The notes under the pieces were generated by a model. It did no database searches. It was not told where the DNA came from and saw only the letters and a list, made by a program, of their open reading frames with translations. The translations under genes and the position numbers were made by a program. From Xenophilus aerolatus (lineage in GTDB: Bacteria > Pseudomonadota > Gammaproteobacteria > Burkholderiales > Burkholderiaceae_C), in NCBI GenBank assembly GCA_030418545.1, contig QAIB01000023.1:1-32466 (forward strand): a stretch of DNA of 32,466 nt, in the 5' to 3' direction. Positions 4,976 to 13,998 of the stretch are shown here, piece by piece; position 1 is the first letter of the stretch; each line of letters opens with the position of its first letter.

Positions 4976-5076
4976 GTAAGCGTGGCCTCACCACCCCATT
5001 GATGGCACAGCCCTGACCGCCGAGCATGTGTGTCCATATGCAGGACTCTGGACACATCTCTCAATGGAGCGGCCCG

Positions 5077-5430
5077 ATGGTCGAGCGCACTATGCGCAAT
5101 GGCAAACGGATCTACACCTCGGCATTCAAGGCTTGGTTGGTGGAACATGCCCGTGTGCCGGGCGTGTCGGTCTCCGGCCTGGCGGTGCGCCACGGCGTCA
5201 ACGCGAACCTGCTGCGCCACTGGATGCGCCTGGAGCACTGGGGCTCTTCTGCGACTGCTCCCGTGCTGTTGCCCGTGACCGTCACGCAGCCAGAGCCTGC
5301 CGCAGTGCCGACGCGCATGGCCGAAGGATCGGCACCGATTGAGATCGCGCTGGGCGAGGCCGTCGTGCGGGTTCCGGCCGACGCGAACCTTCAGCACCTG
5401 CGCCTCGTCCTGCAGGCGCTGCGCGCATGA
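5077..5430 (+). CDS. tnpA: IS66 accessory protein TnpA
   Basis: This 117-residue protein has the TnpA pattern: a basic N-terminus with Y-T-x-x-F-K, a [18 protein letters not shown] helix-turn-helix, a variable linker and a C-terminal strand [12 protein letters not shown]. It is required with TnpB and TnpC for IS66 transposition. The ATG at 5077 has GGAG eight bases upstream; an in-frame ATG at 5026 would give 134 residues but has poorer spacing. The stop overlaps the tnpB ATG (ATGA). Confidence 0.88.
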
Positions 5431-5774
5431 TCGGCCCGCCAGCGAACACCCAGGTCTGGCTGGTGGCCGGTCACACCGACATGCGCAAGGGCTTCGACGG
5501 CCTGGCCGCGCTGGTGCAGACGGCCCTGGCGCAGAGCCCGTTCAAGGGCCACGTCTTCGTCTTCCGTGGCCGCCGCGGTGACATCGTCAAGCTGCTGTGG
5601 TTCGACGGCCAGGGGCTGTTGCTGCTGAGCAAGCGGCTGGAGCGAGGGCGCTTCATCTGGCCGCAGGCCAGCAGCGGCAGCGTGGCCCTCACGCCAGCGC
5701 AACTGTCCATGCTGCTGGAGGGCATCGACTGGCGCATGCCGGTGCGCACGCACCACCCCGAGTTGGCGGCATAG
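5427..5774 (+). CDS. tnpB: IS66 accessory protein TnpB (Orf2)
   Basis: This 115-residue protein matches the IS66 Orf2 family along its length. Landmarks are [34 protein letters not shown], a [11 protein letters not shown] stretch, and a C-terminal [10 protein letters not shown] segment. Translation is coupled to tnpA through a 4-base overlap. Its biochemical role is unclear, but it is conserved in and needed by IS66 elements. Confidence 0.93.
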
Positions 5775-5834
5775 CCACACCGGCGTGCCGTCGGTGGCAC
5801 TACCGATTGCCCAGGGTGCGCCCCTGCGGCACAG

Positions 5835-7412
5835 TTGAGGCCTGTGTCGACACCACCACCCGCCGAGCCCCACACCGTCGAAGGCTTGCTGCGCGTGATC
5901 GAGGTGCGCGATGGCGAACTCGCCGTGCTGCGCCTGATGGTGGACAAGCTCAAGCTGCAACTGCTGCGCCGCGTGCGCGCGCAGTTCGGCAGCTCCAGCG
6001 AACAGCTGCAGGCCAGCCTGATCGACGAGCAGGCGCTGCCCGTTGCGACCTGCAAGCCCACTGGCACCAAGACCGAGGCCGCCAACGCACCCACCATCGA
6101 CCGCAGCCTGCCGGCGCACCTGCCGCGCGAGGCGCAAGTGCATCGCCCCGAGACGAACGCCGCACACCACGACGCATCAGGCCAGCCCTGCGGTTGCACC
6201 GCCTGTGGCGGGCGGCTGCGCCAGATCGGCCAGGACGTCTCCGAGCAACTGGAGTACGTGCCGGCGCGCTTCAAGGTGATCCGCCATGTGCGGCCCAAGC
6301 TGGCCTGCGTGCGCTGCCAGTCCATCTTCCAGGCGGACGCCGCCAGCCGGCCCATCGCACGCGGGCTGGCCGCAGCAGGCCTGCTGGCCCACGTGCTGGT
6401 GTCCAAGTATTGCGACCACCTGCCGCTGTACCGGCAAAGCGGCATCTACGCGCGCAGCGGCGTGCAGATCGACCGCTCCACCATGGCCGGCTGGGTCGAT
6501 CACAGCGAGCGGCTGCTCGCGCCGCTCGTGGCCGCGCTGGGCCGCTACACGCTGGCGGCGGCCAAGCTGCACGCCGACGACACGCCCGTGCCGGTGTTGG
6601 CACCTGGCCAGGGCAAGACGCGCACTGCACGCCTGTGGGTCTACGTGCGCGACGACCGGCCCGCCGGCGCCGGCGAACTACCCGCAGCCTGGTACCAGTA
6701 CACGCCCGACCGCAAGGGCGAACATCCGCAGCGCCACCTGCGCCACTTCCAGGGCGTGCTCCAGGCCGATGCCTACGGCGGCTGGGGCAAGCTATACGAC
6801 AGCGGCCAGGTCACCGAGGCGGCCTGCTGGGCGCATGCACGCCGGCCGTGGTGGGACCTGTACCTGAGCGCCGGCAAGACCGAGGACTCCATCGCAGCCC
6901 AGGCGCTGCAACGCATCGCGGCGCTTTACGCGGTGGAGAAGGAGGTCCGTGGCCAGCCACCGGATGTGCGCAAGGCTCACCGCCAGGCCCGCGCCGGCCC
7001 GCTGCTCGATGAGCTGCACGCCTGGCTGAGCAGCCTGGTGGGGCGCGTGTCGGCCAAGTCCGATCTGGCGCGCGCCATCGGCTACACCCTCACACGCTGG
7101 CAGGCGCTGACGCGCTACCGCGATGACGGGCGCATCGAGATGGACAACAACGCAGCCGAACGTGCCTTGCGCGGGATAGCGCTGGGCCGGGGCAACTACC
7201 TGTTCATGGGCTCGGATGCCGGCGGCGAGCGAGCCGCTGCGATCTACAGCCTGGTGCACACGGCCAAGCTCAACGGGCTCGATCCCGAGGCCTACCTGCG
7301 CGAGGTGCTGGGGCGCATTGCCGACCATCCGATCTGCCAGATCGAGGAACTGCTGCCGTGGAACATCGGCAGAGGCGAGGCGGTGGGCGACGAGCAGCGA
7401 CGCGCCGCATGA
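5835..7412 (+). CDS. tnpC: IS66-family transposase TnpC
   Basis: The 525-residue DDE transposase appears intact. An N-terminal coiled-coil-like helix (L-R-L-M-V-D-K-L-K-L-Q-L-L) and Q-F-G-S-S-S-E precede a zinc-finger-like segment (C-G-C-T-A-C-G-G near 115-125, with C-V-R-C later). The catalytic core has L-H-A-D-D-T-P near 248, Q-A-D-A-Y-G-G near 311 and M-D-N-N-A-A-E-R with Glu near 441. It begins at a TTG (5835), with an in-frame GTG three codons later as alternative. The stop overlaps the start of the fourth gene. Confidence 0.93.
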   Translation: MRPVSTPPPAEPHTVEGLLRVIEVRDGELAVLRLMVDKLKLQLLRRVRAQFGSSSEQLQASLIDEQALPVATCKPTGTKTEAANAPTIDRSLPAHLPREAQVHRPETNAAHHDASGQPCGCTACGGRLRQIGQDVSEQLEYVPARFKVIRHVRPKLACVRCQSIFQADAASRPIARGLAAAGLLAHVLVSKYCDHLPLYRQSGIYARSGVQIDRSTMAGWVDHSERLLAPLVAALGRYTLAAAKLHADDTPVPVLAPGQGKTRTARLWVYVRDDRPAGAGELPAAWYQYTPDRKGEHPQRHLRHFQGVLQADAYGGWGKLYDSGQVTEAACWAHARRPWWDLYLSAGKTEDSIAAQALQRIAALYAVEKEVRGQPPDVRKAHRQARAGPLLDELHAWLSSLVGRVSAKSDLARAIGYTLTRWQALTRYRDDGRIEMDNNAAERALRGIALGRGNYLFMGSDAGGERAAAIYSLVHTAKLNGLDPEAYLREVLGRIADHPICQIEELLPWNIGRGEAVGDEQRRAA

Positions 7413-7930
7413 GCCGCGACGTCGACCCGCGCCTGCTGGAACTGCTGAACACCGCCAGCAGCCTGCAGCTGTTCGAGCTGAGCACCGTCATCGAGCGGCT
7501 GCTGGCCGATCCGCGTCGCATCATCGCCGTGCGGGTGAACCTGCACCTTGGCCAGACGGTACGCTTCCTGGACTGGCGCGACGGCGGCCTGCGCGAGGGC
7601 AAGGTGCTGGCCATGAAGGACACGCAGGTCGTACTGCAGGACCTGCGCGAGCGGCGTGAATGGAAGCTGCCCTATACGGCCATCGAGCCGCCGTCAGCCG
7701 ACGCCGACCGAGCGCAGCAAGGCGCAGCGATGCCGCCTGCGCCGAATGCGCCCAAGCCCACGCGCGAGGACTTCCGCCGCGGCGACAAGGTGGCCTTCGA
7801 GGACAAGTATCTGCAGACGGTGGTTGGCACCGTCGTGCGGATCAACGAGCGCACGGCGACGGTCGATGCCGGTGGTGGCAATACGTGGCGCGTGGGCTTC
7901 GCGCTGCTGCGCCGCGTGCTGGACATCTGA
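7409..7930 (+). CDS. Fourth gene of the IS66 element (passenger protein, function unknown)
   Basis: This 173-residue protein starts at an ATG overlapping the tnpC stop and ends 48 bases before the right terminus, so it travels with the element. The N-terminal part is helical and leucine-rich (L-L-E-L-L-N-T-A-S-S-L-Q-L-F-E-L). Then two similar beta-rich halves follow: V-R-F-L-D-W-R-D-G-G with L-A-M-K-D-T-Q-V-V-L, and later G-D-K-V-A-F with R-I-N-E-R-T-A-T-V-D-A-G-G-G-N-T-W-R-V. The repeated small beta-barrel-like modules would suit nucleic-acid binding, but that is inference. It is not one of the three canonical IS66 proteins. Confidence 0.75.
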   Translation: MSRDVDPRLLELLNTASSLQLFELSTVIERLLADPRRIIAVRVNLHLGQTVRFLDWRDGGLREGKVLAMKDTQVVLQDLRERREWKLPYTAIEPPSADADRAQQGAAMPPAPNAPKPTREDFRRGDKVAFEDKYLQTVVGTVVRINERTATVDAGGGNTWRVGFALLRRVLDI

Positions 7931-7978
7931 GATTCCGCCGAACAGCCAGGGTCAAGATGGGCCTTCGCCCACGCTTAC

Positions 7979-8411
7979 TCCTCTTGGCCACCTCTTGAAG
8001 ATGATTGACGCGACTCGGAGCCGAGATATCGATGAGATCTACTCATCAGTGTCTGCGTTCACAGTGTTCAATCGTAGTCACCGCACAATCGTCTTCAACG
8101 AATCTCACAGCCCCGCAAGGCATCGGTCAAACATGGCGCACGAGTTGGCCCATGCGCTATTGATGCATCATGCAGAGCGCAGCGGGGTCGGAGAGGCTCA
8201 AGAATTACTTCATGAGAAAGAGGCTACATGGCTTGGGGGAGTGTTGATGCTCACCGCTGATCAGGCACACCAAATTGTCACCTGCAATCTTCCGGACACA
8301 ACGGCAACGCATCTGTTTTGCGTGAGCCCTGAAATGCTCCGCTATAGGCTGAATGTCACCGGTGCGGCTAAGTTAGCGCGAGGCCGAAACCTTCCCGCAA
8401 CCGCCGCCTAG
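7979..8411 (+). pseudogene. ImmA/IrrE-family metallopeptidase, N-terminally truncated by IS66
   Basis: The frame downstream of the IS66 terminus encodes a zinc protease domain of the ImmA/IrrE type. It shows F-T-V-F-N-R-S-H-R-T-I-V-F-N-E-S-H-S, then M-A-H-E-L-A-H-A-L-L-M-H-H with the HExxH zinc motif, then E-K-E-A-T-W-L-G-G-V-L-M, the usual third-ligand region, and a C-terminal M-L-R-Y-R-L-N-V-T-G-A. Family members cleave repressors of mobile elements or regulate stress responses and often carry an N-terminal Cro-type DNA-binding domain, which would have been upstream of 7979. An ATG at 8001 could still produce a 136-residue catalytic fragment. It lies 253 bases ahead of the Ntn-hydrolase gene. 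Confidence 0.8.
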
Positions 8412-8664
8412 TAGGGACGGCGCAGACCGTGCGTCCTATCGTTGCACAATGTCGGCGCCCCTCTCACGCCGGAGTGGGAAGAGAGTTAATGCGCGCATGG
8501 GACCATGCCTGAGTCTCCCGACATAGCCAAAACGGACTTTGCTCGACCGAAATGGCCACCGGCGAGACTGTCGGGAGTATGTCGGTGTCGTCGCTGCCCT
8601 GTACCATCGCGTTTCGATCCACTTACTTAATAGCCTGCTGACGTGTCAGTGAGAGGAGACTGTT
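8412..8664. promoter_or_regulatory. Intergenic region with inverted repeat upstream of the Ntn-hydrolase gene
   Basis: The 253-base gap holds no gene. CTCCCGACA (8515-8523) and TGTCGGGAG (8569-8577) are exact reverse complements 45 bases apart, and another GTCGG follows just after the right arm. A clear ribosome binding site (GAGAGGAGA, 8651-8659) precedes the TTG start of the next gene. Promoter hexamers could not be placed with confidence. Confidence 0.4.
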
Positions 8665-9966
8665 TTGACTTGTGAAGTAGCTGTCGCCAACCGCCTGGGA
8701 ATTGCACTAGCCGCAGATAGCGCTGCAACATTTACTCAATCCGGTACAGGGTCACGAACATACGCCACAGGTGCAAATAAGATTTTTCAGCTTGCCGAGT
8801 TTGATCCGGTTGGTTGCATGATCTTTAATAATTCGGCACTCGCAGGGATACCTTGGGAACTGTTAATCAAGGCGTTTCGGGCAACACAGCACAATACTTT
8901 GCCGACTGTTCAGGACTATTGCGACGACTTTCGCGATTTCGTTGCGGGCCAACGTTCTACAGGCCTTCTTCCATTAAGCGTCCGTGGAATTAGCGAACAA
9001 TCGTCGCTGTTGTTCGCTATGCAATCTGTAATGAGCAGCCTAATTGGGACGATGCAGAGTTTGCAAGGCCAAGCACCTGATCCTGCAAGCGCGGCGCAGC
9101 GGACTATGGAACTCGCATCCACGCATGTCGATTCCAGCGCAATCACTGCTCCACTCAGTGCGGAAGACATGGCAGAGACAATCTTGACCCATCAGGCCGA
9201 AATTAGCCTGGCGGTCGAAAAGCTCCTCGAAAGCCCCAAACACTTGGCGATCAAAGGGCTAATTCCGGTTGGATTTATTGTTGACTTAGTATTTAAATCA
9301 CTATTTCAACGCACCTTTGAGACTCTGTCTCAAGCATACACCGGAATTGTCGTCGCTGGTTTTGGTGAATCTCAATATTTGCCAAGCTGCGTGAGCATCA
9401 AAGTATATGGTTTCGTTGCAGGAAAATTGCTTTTTGAGCATGGCGATGGCTTTGCTATGGAACACACTGGGCGCGATTGCTTTATCACGCCGTTTGCGAC
9501 GAGAACGATGGTCGAAACATTCATGCTCGGTGCGAGCTCGAATGTATATGGATTTGTCCAAAATCACTTCGTTTCAAATGCGTCCGCAGCTTGCGACGCC
9601 GTCCTCAAAGCGTCCGGTAGCCAAGTAGACGCGCAAGTCGTCGAGCAGGCAGTGCAGAGTGCGATGGCCCCATTTATGGACGGTTGGATCAGAGACACCT
9701 CGTCAGCTCACTTGCTGCCGCTGCTACGCGTAGTTGGGGGTCTCTCCCTAGGCGAACTGGGGGAGTTGGCAGATACGCTAGTTATGCTAGAGTCGTTGAA
9801 AGAGAAAGTGACCTACCGGACGCAGTCAGTCGGGGGGCCTGTTGACGTTGCACTGATCACAAAATCCGACGGCCTTGTTTGGATCAAGCGCAAGCTCTAC
9901 TTTGATTCGTCACTGAATCATCGATATTTCGCCCGGATGGAACGGAAGCACAAAGGTGCTGCATGA
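8665..9966 (+). CDS. Proteasome beta-subunit-like Ntn-hydrolase, extended
   Basis: The 433-residue protein starts at TTG six bases after GAGAGGAGA, giving Met-Thr-Cys-Glu. After Met removal Thr2 would be the N-terminal nucleophile. The first 45 residues fit the proteasome/HslV pattern: Thr1 (mature numbering), G-I-A-L-A-A-D-S with Asp17, and G-A-N-K-I-F-Q-L with a lysine at 38 where the canonical one is 33. The C-terminus (G-G-P-V-D-V-A-L-I-T-K-S-D-G-L-V-W-I) also resembles the last strands of that fold. The protein is nearly twice the length of HslV; residues about 70-370 form a long, largely helical insertion or second domain. GC content is visibly lower than in neighbours, suggesting transfer. 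The stop overlaps the next gene's start. Peptidase activity is inferred, not shown. Confidence 0.7.
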   Translation: MTCEVAVANRLGIALAADSAATFTQSGTGSRTYATGANKIFQLAEFDPVGCMIFNNSALAGIPWELLIKAFRATQHNTLPTVQDYCDDFRDFVAGQRSTGLLPLSVRGISEQSSLLFAMQSVMSSLIGTMQSLQGQAPDPASAAQRTMELASTHVDSSAITAPLSAEDMAETILTHQAEISLAVEKLLESPKHLAIKGLIPVGFIVDLVFKSLFQRTFETLSQAYTGIVVAGFGESQYLPSCVSIKVYGFVAGKLLFEHGDGFAMEHTGRDCFITPFATRTMVETFMLGASSNVYGFVQNHFVSNASAACDAVLKASGSQVDAQVVEQAVQSAMAPFMDGWIRDTSSAHLLPLLRVVGGLSLGELGELADTLVMLESLKEKVTYRTQSVGGPVDVALITKSDGLVWIKRKLYFDSSLNHRYFARMERKHKGAA

Positions 9967-10199
9967 TGAACTACTACTCGTCGGGTCAGCCTAGTACGTC
10001 GAACATCATCGCCGTGGCTGATCGCGTGTTGGCATCGGCTGGGCGTCTCGTCCATCCGCACAAAGTCAGCGAGCCCGTACCTACCCCCAGCCAATCTCAG
10101 GTCGATGCCTATCGCCAACTGAGAGAGGGCATTGAGCGCAAGCAGGCGTCGGAGCGCACAGTCGAAGACTCTGCGGGGTTTCCTTCGACGTCAATGTGA
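9963..10199 (+). CDS. Small hypothetical protein coupled to the Ntn-hydrolase
   Basis: A 78-residue protein starts at the ATG of ATGATG, which overlaps the preceding stop by four bases, so the two are almost certainly co-translated. It has a tyrosine- and serine-rich start (M-M-N-Y-Y-S-S-G-Q-P), a short amphipathic segment (I-I-A-V-A-D-R-V-L-A-S-A-G-R-L), and a charged helix (Y-R-Q-L-R-E-G-I-E-R-K-Q). No signal peptide, membrane segment or known domain is visible. A strong terminator follows 22 bases after the stop, closing the two-gene unit. It could be an adaptor, substrate or inhibitor of the hydrolase; nothing in the sequence decides. Confidence 0.65.
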   Translation: MMNYYSSGQPSTSNIIAVADRVLASAGRLVHPHKVSEPVPTPSQSQVDAYRQLREGIERKQASERTVEDSAGFPSTSM

Positions 10200-10512: not shown

Positions 10513-11580
10513 TCACTTCGACGGCCGAGGCCGTTTGCCGGAAGAAGCCGCCGGCGCTCGCTCTTTCAGCGATACACCGCGCTTCAGGGCCGCTGCCAGC
10601 AGGTCGCGGGTAACGGCGTGAGATGCCCTTTCCTCGTCGACGCGTAGTTTCAGCGCTGCGGCCTCAGCCGAGCCGGAGGCCACGCACGCGCGGGCGTGTG
10701 CAAGGTCCTGGTCTCGCGCCGCCAGTTGCTCCCGAAGGGCAGCCTCCGCCGCCCGTGCCGCATCGCGAAGGCTGGCTTGCTTGTCCAGCTCGACCTCGAG
10801 CCGCTTCGCCGCCGTCTCTTCGATCTTGACGCGCCGCTGCTGCTCCTTCGCCATGTCACTCTCCAGCGCTCGAGCCGCCTGCCGCGCGCGGTCGACCTCG
10901 GCCAGCATGTGCTTCTCTTGGCCAGCATGCCGCTCCAGCGCCTGGCGCAGATCATGGTCCTTCGCAGCGACAATCTTGGCGTGCTCTCGACGCATTTGCT
11001 CATGGGTGCCGGTCGCCTGTGCGAGGAGAGCGGTTAGCCGCTTCATCTCGTCCTCCAGGCCCATTCGCACGCGCTGCGCCTCGACGGCGTGCTCCTTGAG
11101 TTGTCGCTCCAGCGTCTCGCGCGCCTGCTGCGAGGAGGCGAGCGCGGCATCCAGGCTGGTTCGTGCCTGCACGAAAGCATCCTCACGCTGGCCCAACGCC
11201 GCCTGAGCTGCGGCCAGCGCCTCTTCCCGGGCGTGCAGCTCGCCCTGAGTCGATTCCAGCGCAACGCGCTGCACTTCCTCGGCCTCGCGCCGCGCCGTCT
11301 CCCAGAGCAGCCGCGCCGCGTTGCGCACGCTCGTGGGCATGCCGTCCGAGTCGTTCCCGGCGGGCTTGCCGGCCGCCGGCTTCACGCCCACCACGCGCTC
11401 GCCGAGCGTGGCGAACCATCGCTCGAGCATCGGGCTCACGGTGTTGGGCGAGCCGCGGCCGATCTTCAGGCGCACGCGCTCGATCGTGGGCCTTTTCCCC
11501 TCGGCGAGCAGGGCATCGGCGGCCGTGAAGACGTCGACCTCCTGGATGCCGCGCCCGCGCGACTCGTTGAACTCGATCAT
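10513..11580 (-). CDS. KfrA-like DNA-binding protein with long coiled coil
   Basis: The 355-residue protein has an N-terminal KfrA-type DNA-binding domain: V-F-T-A-A-D-A-L-L-A-E-G-K-R-P-T-I-E-R-V-R followed by G-R-G-S-P-N-T-V and M-L-E-R-W. About 200 residues of Ala/Glu/Arg/Gln-rich coiled coil follow, then a basic tail ending R-P-R-P-S-K. KfrA proteins of plasmids bind operators upstream of their own genes and form filaments that aid plasmid stability; related genes also occur on integrative islands next to recombinases, as here. ATG 11580 has GAGAGG upstream; the frame stays open further up but loses family resemblance. Palindromes at 11675-11726 are plausible autoregulatory sites. Confidence 0.82.
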   Translation of the reverse strand: MIEFNESRGRGIQEVDVFTAADALLAEGKRPTIERVRLKIGRGSPNTVSPMLERWFATLGERVVGVKPAAGKPAGNDSDGMPTSVRNAARLLWETARREAEEVQRVALESTQGELHAREEALAAAQAALGQREDAFVQARTSLDAALASSQQARETLERQLKEHAVEAQRVRMGLEDEMKRLTALLAQATGTHEQMRREHAKIVAAKDHDLRQALERHAGQEKHMLAEVDRARQAARALESDMAKEQQRRVKIEETAAKRLEVELDKQASLRDAARAAEAALREQLAARDQDLAHARACVASGSAEAAALKLRVDEERASHAVTRDLLAAALKRGVSLKERAPAASSGKRPRPSK

Positions 11581-11674
11581 GAGGACCTCTCGCTCCAAAG
11601 CTGCCGATTCCGTGCCGTGCGCCGACCTCGGACGCCGACAACGCGATTCACCCCAAACCGGCCAAAATAACCCT

Positions 11675-11693
11675 CGATAAGGCAAAGTTATCG
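11675..11693. promoter_or_regulatory. Inverted repeat upstream of the KfrA-like gene
   Basis: CGATAA (11675-11680) and TTATCG (11688-11693) flank a 7-base spacer about 95 bases before the KfrA-like start. The sequence is AT-rich against the local background. KfrA proteins autoregulate through operators in this position, so it is a candidate site. Confidence 0.35.
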
Positions 11694-11726: not shown

Positions 11727-12035
11727 GTGATATGTAGAATTCAACATTGAACTCAGCGAATCGAACCCCGTCGGGCCCACTGGCGGCTTCCCTCAACAAG
11801 TGATTCGTTTGACAAAGCTCAGGTAAATCCTTTGGGGGGCCGGGTGACGGGCTTGGTGGCTCACGCTTTCCCCGAAGAACGTGGCCGACTGAGCCCCCTC
11901 GCCGGAGACCCCCCTGATCGGTCGGCTGTGTCACTCCGCCGTCGTCGAGTCCCCCGTCAAAGAGCGAGAGCCGAGGCACACCAGCCTCAAAAGTCGAAGG
12001 CGGTGCAGAAAAGATGCGAAACCTGATGCAAAATG
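11727..12035. other. Intergenic region without recognisable genes
   Basis: About 300 bases between the KfrA promoter region and the VapBC operator contain no gene I can support on either strand. The middle part (about 11835-11965) is rich in C and G runs and may be old mobile-element debris, but no family is recognisable. Confidence 0.3.
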
Positions 12036-12051
12036 GAATCACTATTGATTC
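12036..12051 (+). promoter_or_regulatory. Inverted repeat, likely VapBC operator
   Basis: GAATCA, spacer CTAT and TGATTC form a perfect inverted repeat ending 10 bases before the antitoxin ATG. Type II toxin-antitoxin operons are normally repressed by the antitoxin or complex at such a site. The repeat occupies the place of the ribosome binding site region. Confidence 0.5.
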
Positions 12052-12061
12052 AGGACTGGCC

Positions 12062-12268
12062 ATGCGAACCACCGTCACCATCGAAGACTCTCTGTTCGAG
12101 AAGGCCCTTGAACTGGCCGATCCCGAAATGGACAAGGCGGAGATCTTTCGCGAAGCGATCCGCACGTTCGTGCGTGTTCAGGCGGGCAAGCGCCTCATTG
12201 CGCTCGGAGGGGCCGCCCCTGACATCAAGGACGTCCCACGGCGTCGAGGCGAGTTGATCTCGCGATGA
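12062..12268 (+). CDS. vapB: VapB-type antitoxin
   Basis: The 68-residue protein begins [11 protein letters not shown], the typical start of ribbon-helix-helix VapB antitoxins, followed by [12 protein letters not shown]. The C-terminal part ([14 protein letters not shown]) is the flexible toxin-binding tail. It would neutralise the downstream PIN-domain RNase and repress the operon through the palindrome at 12036-12051. The ATG at 12062 is preferred over an upstream in-frame ATG at 12014 because the family begins here. Its stop overlaps the toxin start by four bases. Confidence 0.88.
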
Positions 12269-12639
12269 GCGTGCTCGTCGACACCTCCGTCTGGATCGAC
12301 CATTTCCGCAGCGGCAACGCCGCCCTGGCAAACCTGGTCGGCTCGGACCTCGCCTTGACCCATCCGATGGTGATCGTTGAATTGGCCTGTGGCACCCCTC
12401 CATCTCCGAGAGAGCAATCGCTTGGCAGCCTGAGCCTGCTGAAGTCGTGCAATCAGGCCACGCTGGACGAAGTGCTCGAACTGATCGAGCGAGAAAAGCT
12501 GTACGGACTCGGGTGCGGATTGGTCGACATGGCGCTACTTGCGTCGACCCTCATCACCCCAGGCGCGCGCCTATGGACCCTCGATCGGCGCCTGTTGGAA
12601 TTGGCGCAGCGATTCGACGTCGCACATGGCCTCCACTGA
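12265..12639 (+). CDS. vapC: VapC-type PIN-domain ribonuclease toxin
   Basis: The 124-residue PIN-domain protein has the expected acidic metal-binding residues: Asp6 in V-D-T-S-V-W-I-D, Glu39 in V-I-V-E-L, Asp88 in G-L-V-D-M-A-L-L-A and Asp107 in W-T-L-D-R-R-L. VapC toxins cleave tRNA or rRNA when the antitoxin is degraded. Length and motif order are those of an intact toxin. It is translationally coupled to vapB (ATGA) and lies between the KfrA-like gene and the integrase, where it could stabilise the island. Confidence 0.92.
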
Positions 12640-12690: not shown

Positions 12691-13998
12691 ATGAATTCAC
12701 CCCGCCGATCCGGTCCGAGCCCCCTGGCGATCACAGGACCCACCGCGGCCGCCCTCGAGGCATCAGCAGCCGCTGCGGACCATCCGCTGGCCACGCTGGC
12801 CGATCGCCGCGCCGTGCTCGATCCGAAGCGGCTGGCGACGACTGCGGAGCAAGCGGCCCGCGCGCTGCTGCGCCAGGGCGAGTCGAGCAACACGCGCGCC
12901 TCGTACGGCTCGGCCATGCGCTACTGGTGCGCTTGGTATGCGGCACGCTACGGCGGCGCGCTGGCGTTACCCGTACCCGTGCCGGTCGTGGTGCAGTTCA
13001 TCGTCGATCACGCGGCACGCCGCCTGGACGAGCCTGAGGACCCCGTCGCTCCGAACGCGCCCTCGGAGACAAACGACGACGTCCAGAAGCAGCCCACGGG
13101 CCGCAAGCGCCGCATAAACAAACTGAGCGCCGAACTCGTTACCGAGCTGCCGGCCGATGTCGACGAGGCGCTGGTGCGCAATGGCTACAAGGCCAAGCTC
13201 GGTCCGCCGGCATTGAACACGCTGGTGCATCGCGTTGCAGTGCTCTCCAAGGCGCACCAGATGGCCAGATCCGGAGCTGCGGGCGGCACTGTCTCGCGAG
13301 ACGGAGATGTCGCCAATCCCTGCGCCGACGAGTTGGTGCGCGAACTGCTCGCGCGCACCCGCCGGGCCTACGCGCAGCGCGGCGCGCGCCCCAAGCGCCA
13401 GCGTGCGCTGACGAAGGACCCGCTGCAGCTGCTATTGGCCACGTGCGACGAGTCTCTCAAGGGCAAGCGCGACCGCGCGCTGCTGCTTTTCGGATGGGCC
13501 ACCGGCGGGCGCCGGCGCTCCGAGATCGCCTCGGCCACGCTCGAGAACCTGCAGCGCATCGATGCCGAGGCCTTCGTCTACACCCTCGCCCACTCCAAGA
13601 CCAACCAGCGCGGCGACGTGCGGCCCGAAGACGTGAAGCCTCTCGTGGGCAGCGCCGCGGCGGCCATGCGGGAATGGCTCGCGGTCCTCCGAGCGCAGGG
13701 AATCCAGGACGGGCCCATCTTCCGGCGCATCCGCCGCGGCGGGCACCTGGGCGAGCCGCTCGCGGCGGCCGCCGTGCGCGACATCGTGAAGGAGCGTTGC
13801 GCGCTCGCCGGGGTCGAGGGGAGCTTTTCGGCGCACTCGCTGCGCGCGGGGTTCGTCACCGAGGCGGGCCGCCAGAACATGCCGCTGCCCGAGACCATGG
13901 CCATGACCGGACACCAGAGCGTGGCGACTGTGGTGGGGTACTTCCGCTCTGAGAGTGCGCTCGCCGGAAAGCTCGGGCGCCTGCTCGACGACACGTGA
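12691..13998 (+). CDS. Tyrosine-type site-specific recombinase (integrase)
   Basis: The 435-residue recombinase has an N-terminal SAM-like core-binding domain (S-S-N-T-R-A-S-Y-G-S-A-M-R-Y-W near 70-85) and a C-terminal catalytic domain. The latter shows G-G-R-R-R-S-E with Arg274-276, H-S-L-R-A-G-F with His382 and Arg385, G-H-Q-S with His408, and V-V-G-Y-F with nucleophile Tyr417, so the active site appears complete. A charged insert near 115-145 separates the halves. It probably mobilised the segment carrying the KfrA-like and VapBC genes. Immediately downstream the sequence changes to a broken sensor kinase, so the gene sits at a boundary. Confidence 0.92.
   Translation: MNSPRRSGPSPLAITGPTAAALEASAAAADHPLATLADRRAVLDPKRLATTAEQAARALLRQGESSNTRASYGSAMRYWCAWYAARYGGALALPVPVPVVVQFIVDHAARRLDEPEDPVAPNAPSETNDDVQKQPTGRKRRINKLSAELVTELPADVDEALVRNGYKAKLGPPALNTLVHRVAVLSKAHQMARSGAAGGTVSRDGDVANPCADELVRELLARTRRAYAQRGARPKRQRALTKDPLQLLLATCDESLKGKRDRALLLFGWATGGRRRSEIASATLENLQRIDAEAFVYTLAHSKTNQRGDVRPEDVKPLVGSAAAAMREWLAVLRAQGIQDGPIFRRIRRGGHLGEPLAAAAVRDIVKERCALAGVEGSFSAHSLRAGFVTEAGRQNMPLPETMAMTGHQSVATVVGYFRSESALAGKLGRLLDDT

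What the first reader, a model, noticed from the sequence alone, without database searches (positions are those of the whole stretch)
8665..9966. Oversized proteasome-like Ntn-hydrolase with an encoded N-terminal threonine
Seen: a TTG start behind GAGAGGAGA gives Met-Thr-Cys, then Asp at mature position 17 and Lys at 38, and a C-terminal strand pattern like proteasome beta/HslV proteins. Known: Thr1, Asp17 and Lys33 are the catalytic set of proteasome beta/HslV peptidases, usually about 170-240 residues. Here the protein is 433 residues, with roughly 300 residues of mostly helical sequence inserted between the early and late strands. Inference: a self-compartmentalising or regulated peptidase unlike HslV, Anbu or BPH, carried on an island.
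Basis: partly seen in the sequence, partly recalled or inferred. Interest (0 to 1): 0.72.

Follow-up and report, generated by a model that had tools for sequence, protein, structure and literature searches.

The report
Phage-borne proteasome-like protease with partner
The gene encodes an oversized relative of the proteasome's cutting subunit, of a kind described in 2021 without a function, and it often travels on phages and mobile islands with a small partner gene attached, which points to a role in contests between phages that can now be tested.

Summary

What I add is context. A short same-strand ORF (window: 9963-10199, 78 aa) is coupled to the gene in 71 of 80 genome loci, against 179 of 742 control genes, and in 46 of 55 viral loci, against 93 of 310. 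It is under purifying selection where testable. Carriers include prophages, streptococcal satellite phages and plasmids; in viral contigs the gene often lies behind the repressor or near antiterminator Q. Best reading: a Thr-peptidase with a small regulatory or adaptor partner, carried as phage-competition cargo. Defence is inferred, not shown.

The parts
8651..8659 (+). ribosome-binding-site-like GAGAGGAGA
   Evidence: sequence
8665..9966 (+). PMI-4-type proteasome homolog, 433 aa, TTG start
8668..8670 (+). codon of Thr2 (Thr1 of the mature protein), putative nucleophile
   Evidence: T 67, S 2 of 69 relatives; aligned range starts at Thr1 of yeast beta5
8716..8718 (+). codon of Asp18 (proteasome Asp17)
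   Evidence: 69 of 69
8779..8781 (+). codon of Lys39 (proteasome Lys33)
   Evidence: 69 of 69; aligned in the PDB profile search
8974..9327 (+). helical insertion 1, residues 104-221, after helices H1/H2
   Evidence: model; low conservation 0.22
9535..9738 (+). helical insertion 2, residues 291-358, between H3 and H4
   Evidence: model; low conservation 0.28
9826..9846 (+). SVGGPVD, start of the conserved C-terminal core strand segment
   Evidence: V389, G390, G391, P392, D394 in 69 of 69; matches SGGMIDV of a 20S beta subunit
9963..10199 (+). small coupled ORF, 78 aa, ATGA overlap with the protease stop
   Evidence: position: 71 of 80 genome loci and 46 of 55 viral loci have such an ORF; no sequence relative of this copy found
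5026..7412 (+). IS66-type insertion-sequence genes upstream
   Evidence: Pfam
10513..11685 (-). KfrA_N protein, flank of the island
   Evidence: Pfam
12691..13998 (+). tyrosine integrase, flank of the island
   Evidence: Pfam Phage_integrase

Best explanation
The protein is a PMI-4-type proteasome homolog. SHOWN by computation: the Ntn (proteasome beta) core, the conserved Thr1/Asp17/Lys33 set, two helical insertions, a coupled small second gene in most relatives examined, and carriage by phages, prophages, phage satellites and plasmids as well as by chromosomes. INFERRED: Met1 is removed after translation to expose Thr1; the fast-evolving insertions form a lid or target-recognition surface near the active site; the small protein, with a C-terminal helix where one could be modelled, docks on the enzyme and controls or targets it; and the pair is made by the lysogen or island carrier to exclude competing phages by cleaving an infection-related protein.
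For: Fold and nucleophile position; catalytic residues; profile match to 20S beta at both ends of the protein; insertions at the PMI-3/PMI-4 sites; coupled small ORF above controls in two partly overlapping sets and in 7 of 11 loci of a phylum scan; dN/dS 0.12-0.29 in the 10 of 15 pairs where it could be computed; 13 phage records, 7 of them satellites, 10 plasmid records, 159 viral contigs; directly behind a repressor-like gene in 11 of 57 viral representatives; E. coli prophage copies, 4 of 22 read; patchy distribution.
Against: No activity, Met removal, complex or phage phenotype is tested. PF00227 is not reached by the window protein and only 17 of 69 relatives give hits at E <= 1; hhalign with a thin HslV profile is weak. 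Nine of 80 genome loci, 9 of 55 viral loci and the second E. coli type lack a near partner, and the window's partner has no detectable sequence relative. Known defence genes among the neighbours scanned are scattered and had no control. No PADLOC model matches the protein. Many carriers are chromosomal loci whose mobility was not tested.
Confidence: 0.5

Rival explanations
1. Element-control protease: it cleaves a regulator (for example a repressor or antirepressor) to tune lysogeny, excision or maintenance of its own mobile element, rather than excluding other phages.
For: Position next to repressors and Q.
Against: The same gene is found on plasmids, in a non-phage-like chromosomal setting in many loci and in several unrelated phage slots, which does not fit one cognate regulator.
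Confidence: 0.2
2. Toxin-antitoxin or addiction module: the protease is toxic and the small protein restrains it.
For: Two coupled genes, one small, on mobile elements.
Against: Partner not found near the gene in 9 of 80 genome loci, 9 of 55 viral loci and the second E. coli type, some of which are broken or may have unrecognised partners; the partner is second in order.
Confidence: 0.15
3. Protein ligase or dedicated processing enzyme, like connectase, acting on the small protein as its substrate.
For: Connectase is a proteasome homolog with ligase activity (PMC8665760 abstract); the coupled small protein could be the substrate.
Against: Connectase's S3/S4 two-helix insertion is not seen in the model; no recognition motif was found in the small proteins.
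Confidence: 0.1
4. General protein-quality-control peptidase that forms rings like HslV or the proteasome.
For: Same fold and nucleophile position.
Against: Rare and patchy; often on phages; the window's genome already has an HslV-type match and two weaker PF00227 matches; two large insertions.
Confidence: 0.05

Closest known systems
PMI-4 (Proteasome homolog with Multiple Insertions 4; Fuchs, Alva and Lupas 2021, PMC8665760)
   Same: Proteasome core with Thr1/Asp17/Lys33; insertions after H1/H2 and between H3/H4; several hundred members across bacteria, Euryarchaeota and phages.
   Different: Direct clustering with the published PMI-4 set was not possible. The paper reports no context suggestive of function; a coupled small gene and recurrent phage slots are added here.
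20S proteasome beta subunit
   Different: About 200 residues, no such helical insertions; PF00227 is not matched by the window protein.
Anbu
   Different: Anbu lacks the two large insertions; sequences far apart.
HslV, BPH and PPH
   Same: Proteasome-type Thr peptidases of bacteria and phages; 4 of 69 relatives weakly match phrog_1040 'peptidase HslV family'.
   Different: Compact, about 140-180 residues (PPH length from the paper); hhalign with four HslV sequences weak.
Prophage and satellite anti-phage cargo (Rousset et al. 2022, PMC9122126, abstract seen; lambda rexAB, recalled)
   Same: Variable cargo slots in prophages and satellites; the position downstream of the repressor resembles rexAB.
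   Different: No defence activity is known for this gene, and the slots here are not those of P2 and P4.

Membership tests
Proteasome-like (Ntn) superfamily | four-layer Ntn fold of the proteasome beta type | tested here: met
Proteasome-like (Ntn) superfamily | N-terminal Thr/Ser1, Asp17, Lys33 | tested here: met
   T 67 and S 2, D 69, K 69 of 69; in register with 20S beta
Proteasome-like (Ntn) superfamily | oxyanion-hole Gly47 | tested here: inconclusive
   the likely position, N55 (placed by eye), is N 35, G 21, D 6, S 5 of 69; no residue-level structural alignment available
Pfam PF00227 (curated model) | match to the Pfam model | tested here: not met
   window protein no match at E <= 1; 17 of 69 relatives with hits at E <= 1, best 0.0033
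PMI-4 | insertion after helices H1/H2 | tested here: met
   helices 104-220 follow H1 64-74 and H2 82-94
PMI-4 | insertion between helices H3 and H4 | tested here: met
   helices 292-317 and 323-358 between 281-288 and 362-383
PMI-4 | broad bacterial, euryarchaeal and phage distribution | tested here: met
   titles of loci include Pseudomonadota, Bacteroidota, Bacillota, Actinomycetota and methanogen MAGs; phages
PMI-4 | clusters with the published PMI-4 sequences (HDY66466.1) | not testable with these tools
   published set not available here
HslV | compact subunit of about 175 residues with HslU partner | tested here: not met
   433 residues with two insertions; no HslU gene among the flanking ORFs scanned in the window
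Connectase | two-helix insertion between strands S3 and S4 | tested here: not met
   no helix before residue 64 in the model
Known anti-phage systems (PADLOC-DB) | match to a PADLOC model | tested here: not met
   no match at E <= 1 for the protease; the small protein was not scanned with PADLOC
Self-compartmentalising protease | ring assembly enclosing the active sites | not testable with these tools
   no complex prediction was available

The most novel reading that the evidence does not exclude
PMI-4 plus its small coupled partner is a two-gene anti-phage (superinfection-exclusion) system: a proteasome-fold Thr-protease as immune effector, licensed or aimed by a fast-evolving small adaptor, carried as cargo by prophages, satellites and islands across bacteria and archaea.
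Probability: 0.38. Interest if true: 0.82.

Novelty: new member of a known kind. Interest (0 to 1): 0.55.

Why it matters
PMI-4 is one of the most numerous of the 22 newly described proteasome homologs, and Fuchs et al. could offer no function or context. A conserved coupled partner and recurrent phage slots (behind the repressor, near Q, and satellite ends) turn an orphan fold into a testable two-component hypothesis, with an E. coli prophage version suited to laboratory strains. If confirmed it would link the proteasome fold to bacterial immunity.

Tried and rejected
Single-sequence searches of Pfam, NCBIfam, PADLOC and PDB sequences found nothing for the protease. The single-sequence viral-contig scan found nothing; the alignment-based scan found 159 contigs, of which 80 were kept. 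hhalign against four HslV sequences was weak (Prob 1.1, E 0.049), perhaps because that profile is thin. Chance ORF as an explanation of the partner in general: rejected by the controls and dN/dS. Homology of the window's own partner to other partners by sequence: not established (where 25 of 1000 shuffles scored as well and at least two other window ORFs scored higher). Defence islands: PADLOC hits among 136 of the 274 neighbour genes listed (even-numbered loci only) were scattered (type I restriction, MADS, PtuA, PDC-S01; no family shown with more than 2 members), without a control, so inconclusive. PHROGs for 67 small proteins: no shared family. Literature: 7 searches; among the rows listed (12 of 129), judged by title and abstract start, only Fuchs et al. 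2021 dealt with this family. PMC13022661 was looked at only by passages, which fell in its reference list.

Rows dropped or overlapping. A2: 108 of the 119 listed homologues besides the window's own record were aligned; 11 were left out, at least 5 because their records lack the N-terminus (seen), the others without individual inspection, so A2's invariant Thr2 is a count on chosen rows. A3: 69 of 80 loci (left out: 7 broken, cut or unclear starts, 3 ambiguous starts, 1 duplicate); by script 69 T and 4 S of 73 loci; one S (L032) looks like a mis-picked start; of 57 viral representatives 54 T, 2 S (both look like mis-picked starts followed by a Thr start) and 1 unassigned. One search includes two identical loci (L022, L025) and some ORFs that may be spurious, as its control does.

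Full report
OBSERVATION. The ORF at 8665-9966 (+) is as described: TTG start after GAGAGGAGA, 433 aa, Met-Thr-Cys-Glu. On its own it has no Pfam, NCBIfam or PADLOC match and no PDB sequence match, but 2205 homologues at E <= 1e-3 among the 8000 candidates scored, of which the best 120 are listed; where the listing gives a name it is nearly always 'hypothetical' or 'uncharacterized' protein. The window is part of Xenophilus sp. E41 (L002).

ARCHITECTURE. The extra residues form two helical insertions: 104-221 after H1/H2 and 291-358 between H3/H4. They are the least conserved parts (mean commonest-residue fraction 0.22 and 0.28, against 0.54, 0.45 and 0.74 for the three core segments and 0.39 for the tail). 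Fuchs, Alva and Lupas 2021 (PMC8665760; abstract, parts 2-4 of 6 of the text, and passages) describe 22 new proteasome homologs. Those with both insertions are PMI-3 (28 sequences at 90%, narrow) and PMI-4 (501 sequences, wide, phages included). Spread and number here fit PMI-4. They state that they found no genomic context suggestive of a specific function. All 69 relatives also match phrog_5990, function unknown.

A COUPLED SMALL GENE. In the window an ORF of 78 aa (9963-10199) starts in an overlapping ATGA. Across 80 genome loci, 71 have a same-strand ORF of 45-110 aa starting between -40 and +35 nt of the stop, against 179 of 742 other genes of 150 aa or more in the same loci (odds ratio 24.8, Fisher p 1.5e-30). 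Of 57 viral representatives (80 loci, clustered at 90%), 55 have enough flank and 46 of these have such an ORF, against 93 of 310 control genes; the two sets share at least three records. Of 11 loci of a phylum scan other than the window's, 7 have one with starts allowed to +60. Of 15 pairs compared, dN/dS could be computed in 10 and is 0.12-0.29; the other 5 are saturated at synonymous sites; in 12 of 15 the small protein has the higher pN. Annotators have called it in a Providencia phage, a Porphyromonas phage and an E. faecium plasmid. A model of one Bacteroidota copy has a low-confidence N-terminal part and a helix at 40-70 (mean pLDDT 71.9, pTM 0.40). The window copy has no relative but itself in the protein database, and its resemblance to partners of nearby relatives is marginal. 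For the window the assignment therefore rests on position.

MOBILITY. The gene lies in a GC dip (0.50-0.51 for 8501-10000, against 0.56-0.72 in the 1-kb windows that do not touch it), with IS66 genes upstream and KfrA-like, PIN and tyrosine-integrase genes downstream. Presence is patchy, the window's own genome being included in each count: 2 of 100 genomes in the family, 4 of 399 in the order (one a C-terminal piece, one a weak 45-residue match), 13 of 397 in the phylum (one a weak 43-residue match), and 2 of 15 in the genus, both the window's species. Thirteen phage records carry it, seven of them Streptococcus satellite phages, in six of which it ends within about 190 nt of the record's end. 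Ten plasmid records (8 over at least 80% of the query) and 159 viral contigs also match.

WHICH PHAGE SLOT. In E. coli, 22 of 5426 genomes match, over 12-16% of the query DNA in the 20 rows listed; the four that I read carry full-length genes in prophages. In one type (2 read) the gene lies on the strand opposite to Q, between Q and a methyltransferase, with an unannotated 49-aa ORF 24 nt behind. In the other (2 read) the annotated start lies 42-45 nt behind a helix-turn-helix gene on the same strand (the Met-Thr start about 141 nt behind), and the nearest small ORF is a doubtful TTG one at +73. Seven related prophages read, of 79 genomes matched, lack the gene; their slot holds other small genes, or perhaps none in one (L141), and two share the same cargo. 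In viral contigs, 27 of 57 representatives have a same-strand upstream neighbour within 300 nt, and 11 of these 27 match phrog_4 'transcriptional repressor'; among 139 of 208 neighbours (those of 95 aa or more), 13 match phrog_4, 10 a Q-like family and 5 a holin family. No formal background rate was computed for these slots. The position behind the repressor recalls lambda rexAB (recalled), and prophage and satellite hotspots of anti-phage genes are documented (PMC9122126, abstract).

MECHANISM. I consider most likely a Thr-peptidase, exposed by Met removal, with its active site screened by the variable helical insertions and its activity or target set by the small coupled protein, made by the lysogen or island carrier to exclude competing phages. 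Fold, residues, operon and carriage are shown by computation; Met removal, lid, docking and defence are inferred. Overall confidence 0.5; my own estimates for the parts are: proteasome-type fold and catalytic set about 0.95, PMI-4 about 0.8, conserved operon about 0.9, defence about 0.4.

VERDICT. The protein kind is already published, so its novelty is limited. The coupled partner and the recurrent phage slots were not found in print in the searches made, which cover open-licence papers only, and they make an open question testable.

Noticed in passing
window 7656-8411 (+): ORF whose residues 137-233 match Peptidase_M78 (ImmA/IrrE-like); the N-terminal part looks unrelated, perhaps a remnant at the IS66 border. 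M78 was seen in only 2 of 136 neighbour genes scanned, so it is not a conserved partner.
   Followed up: partly
window 12014-12639 (+): An 84-aa ORF overlapping a PIN-domain ORF (12265-12639): arrangement of a VapBC-type toxin-antitoxin pair (name recalled).
   Followed up: no
window's genome, contigs 43, 11 and 32 (L096, L106): The genome has three PF00227 matches besides the window gene: a strong HslV-type one, a weaker one and a partial one. The last two look like BPH and Anbu by motifs that I recall.
   Followed up: partly
L022, L025, L036: Members with Ser instead of Thr at position 2: a natural test of the Thr/Ser nucleophile choice.
   Followed up: no
L013, L067, L071, L075: Copies that look interrupted, as expected of a dispensable mobile gene; sequencing errors not excluded.
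   Followed up: no
L137-L143, slot between the repressor gene and the small gene before YdaE: Rac-like E. coli prophages have a variable cargo slot behind the repressor with several unnamed small genes and a KilA-N gene.
   Followed up: partly
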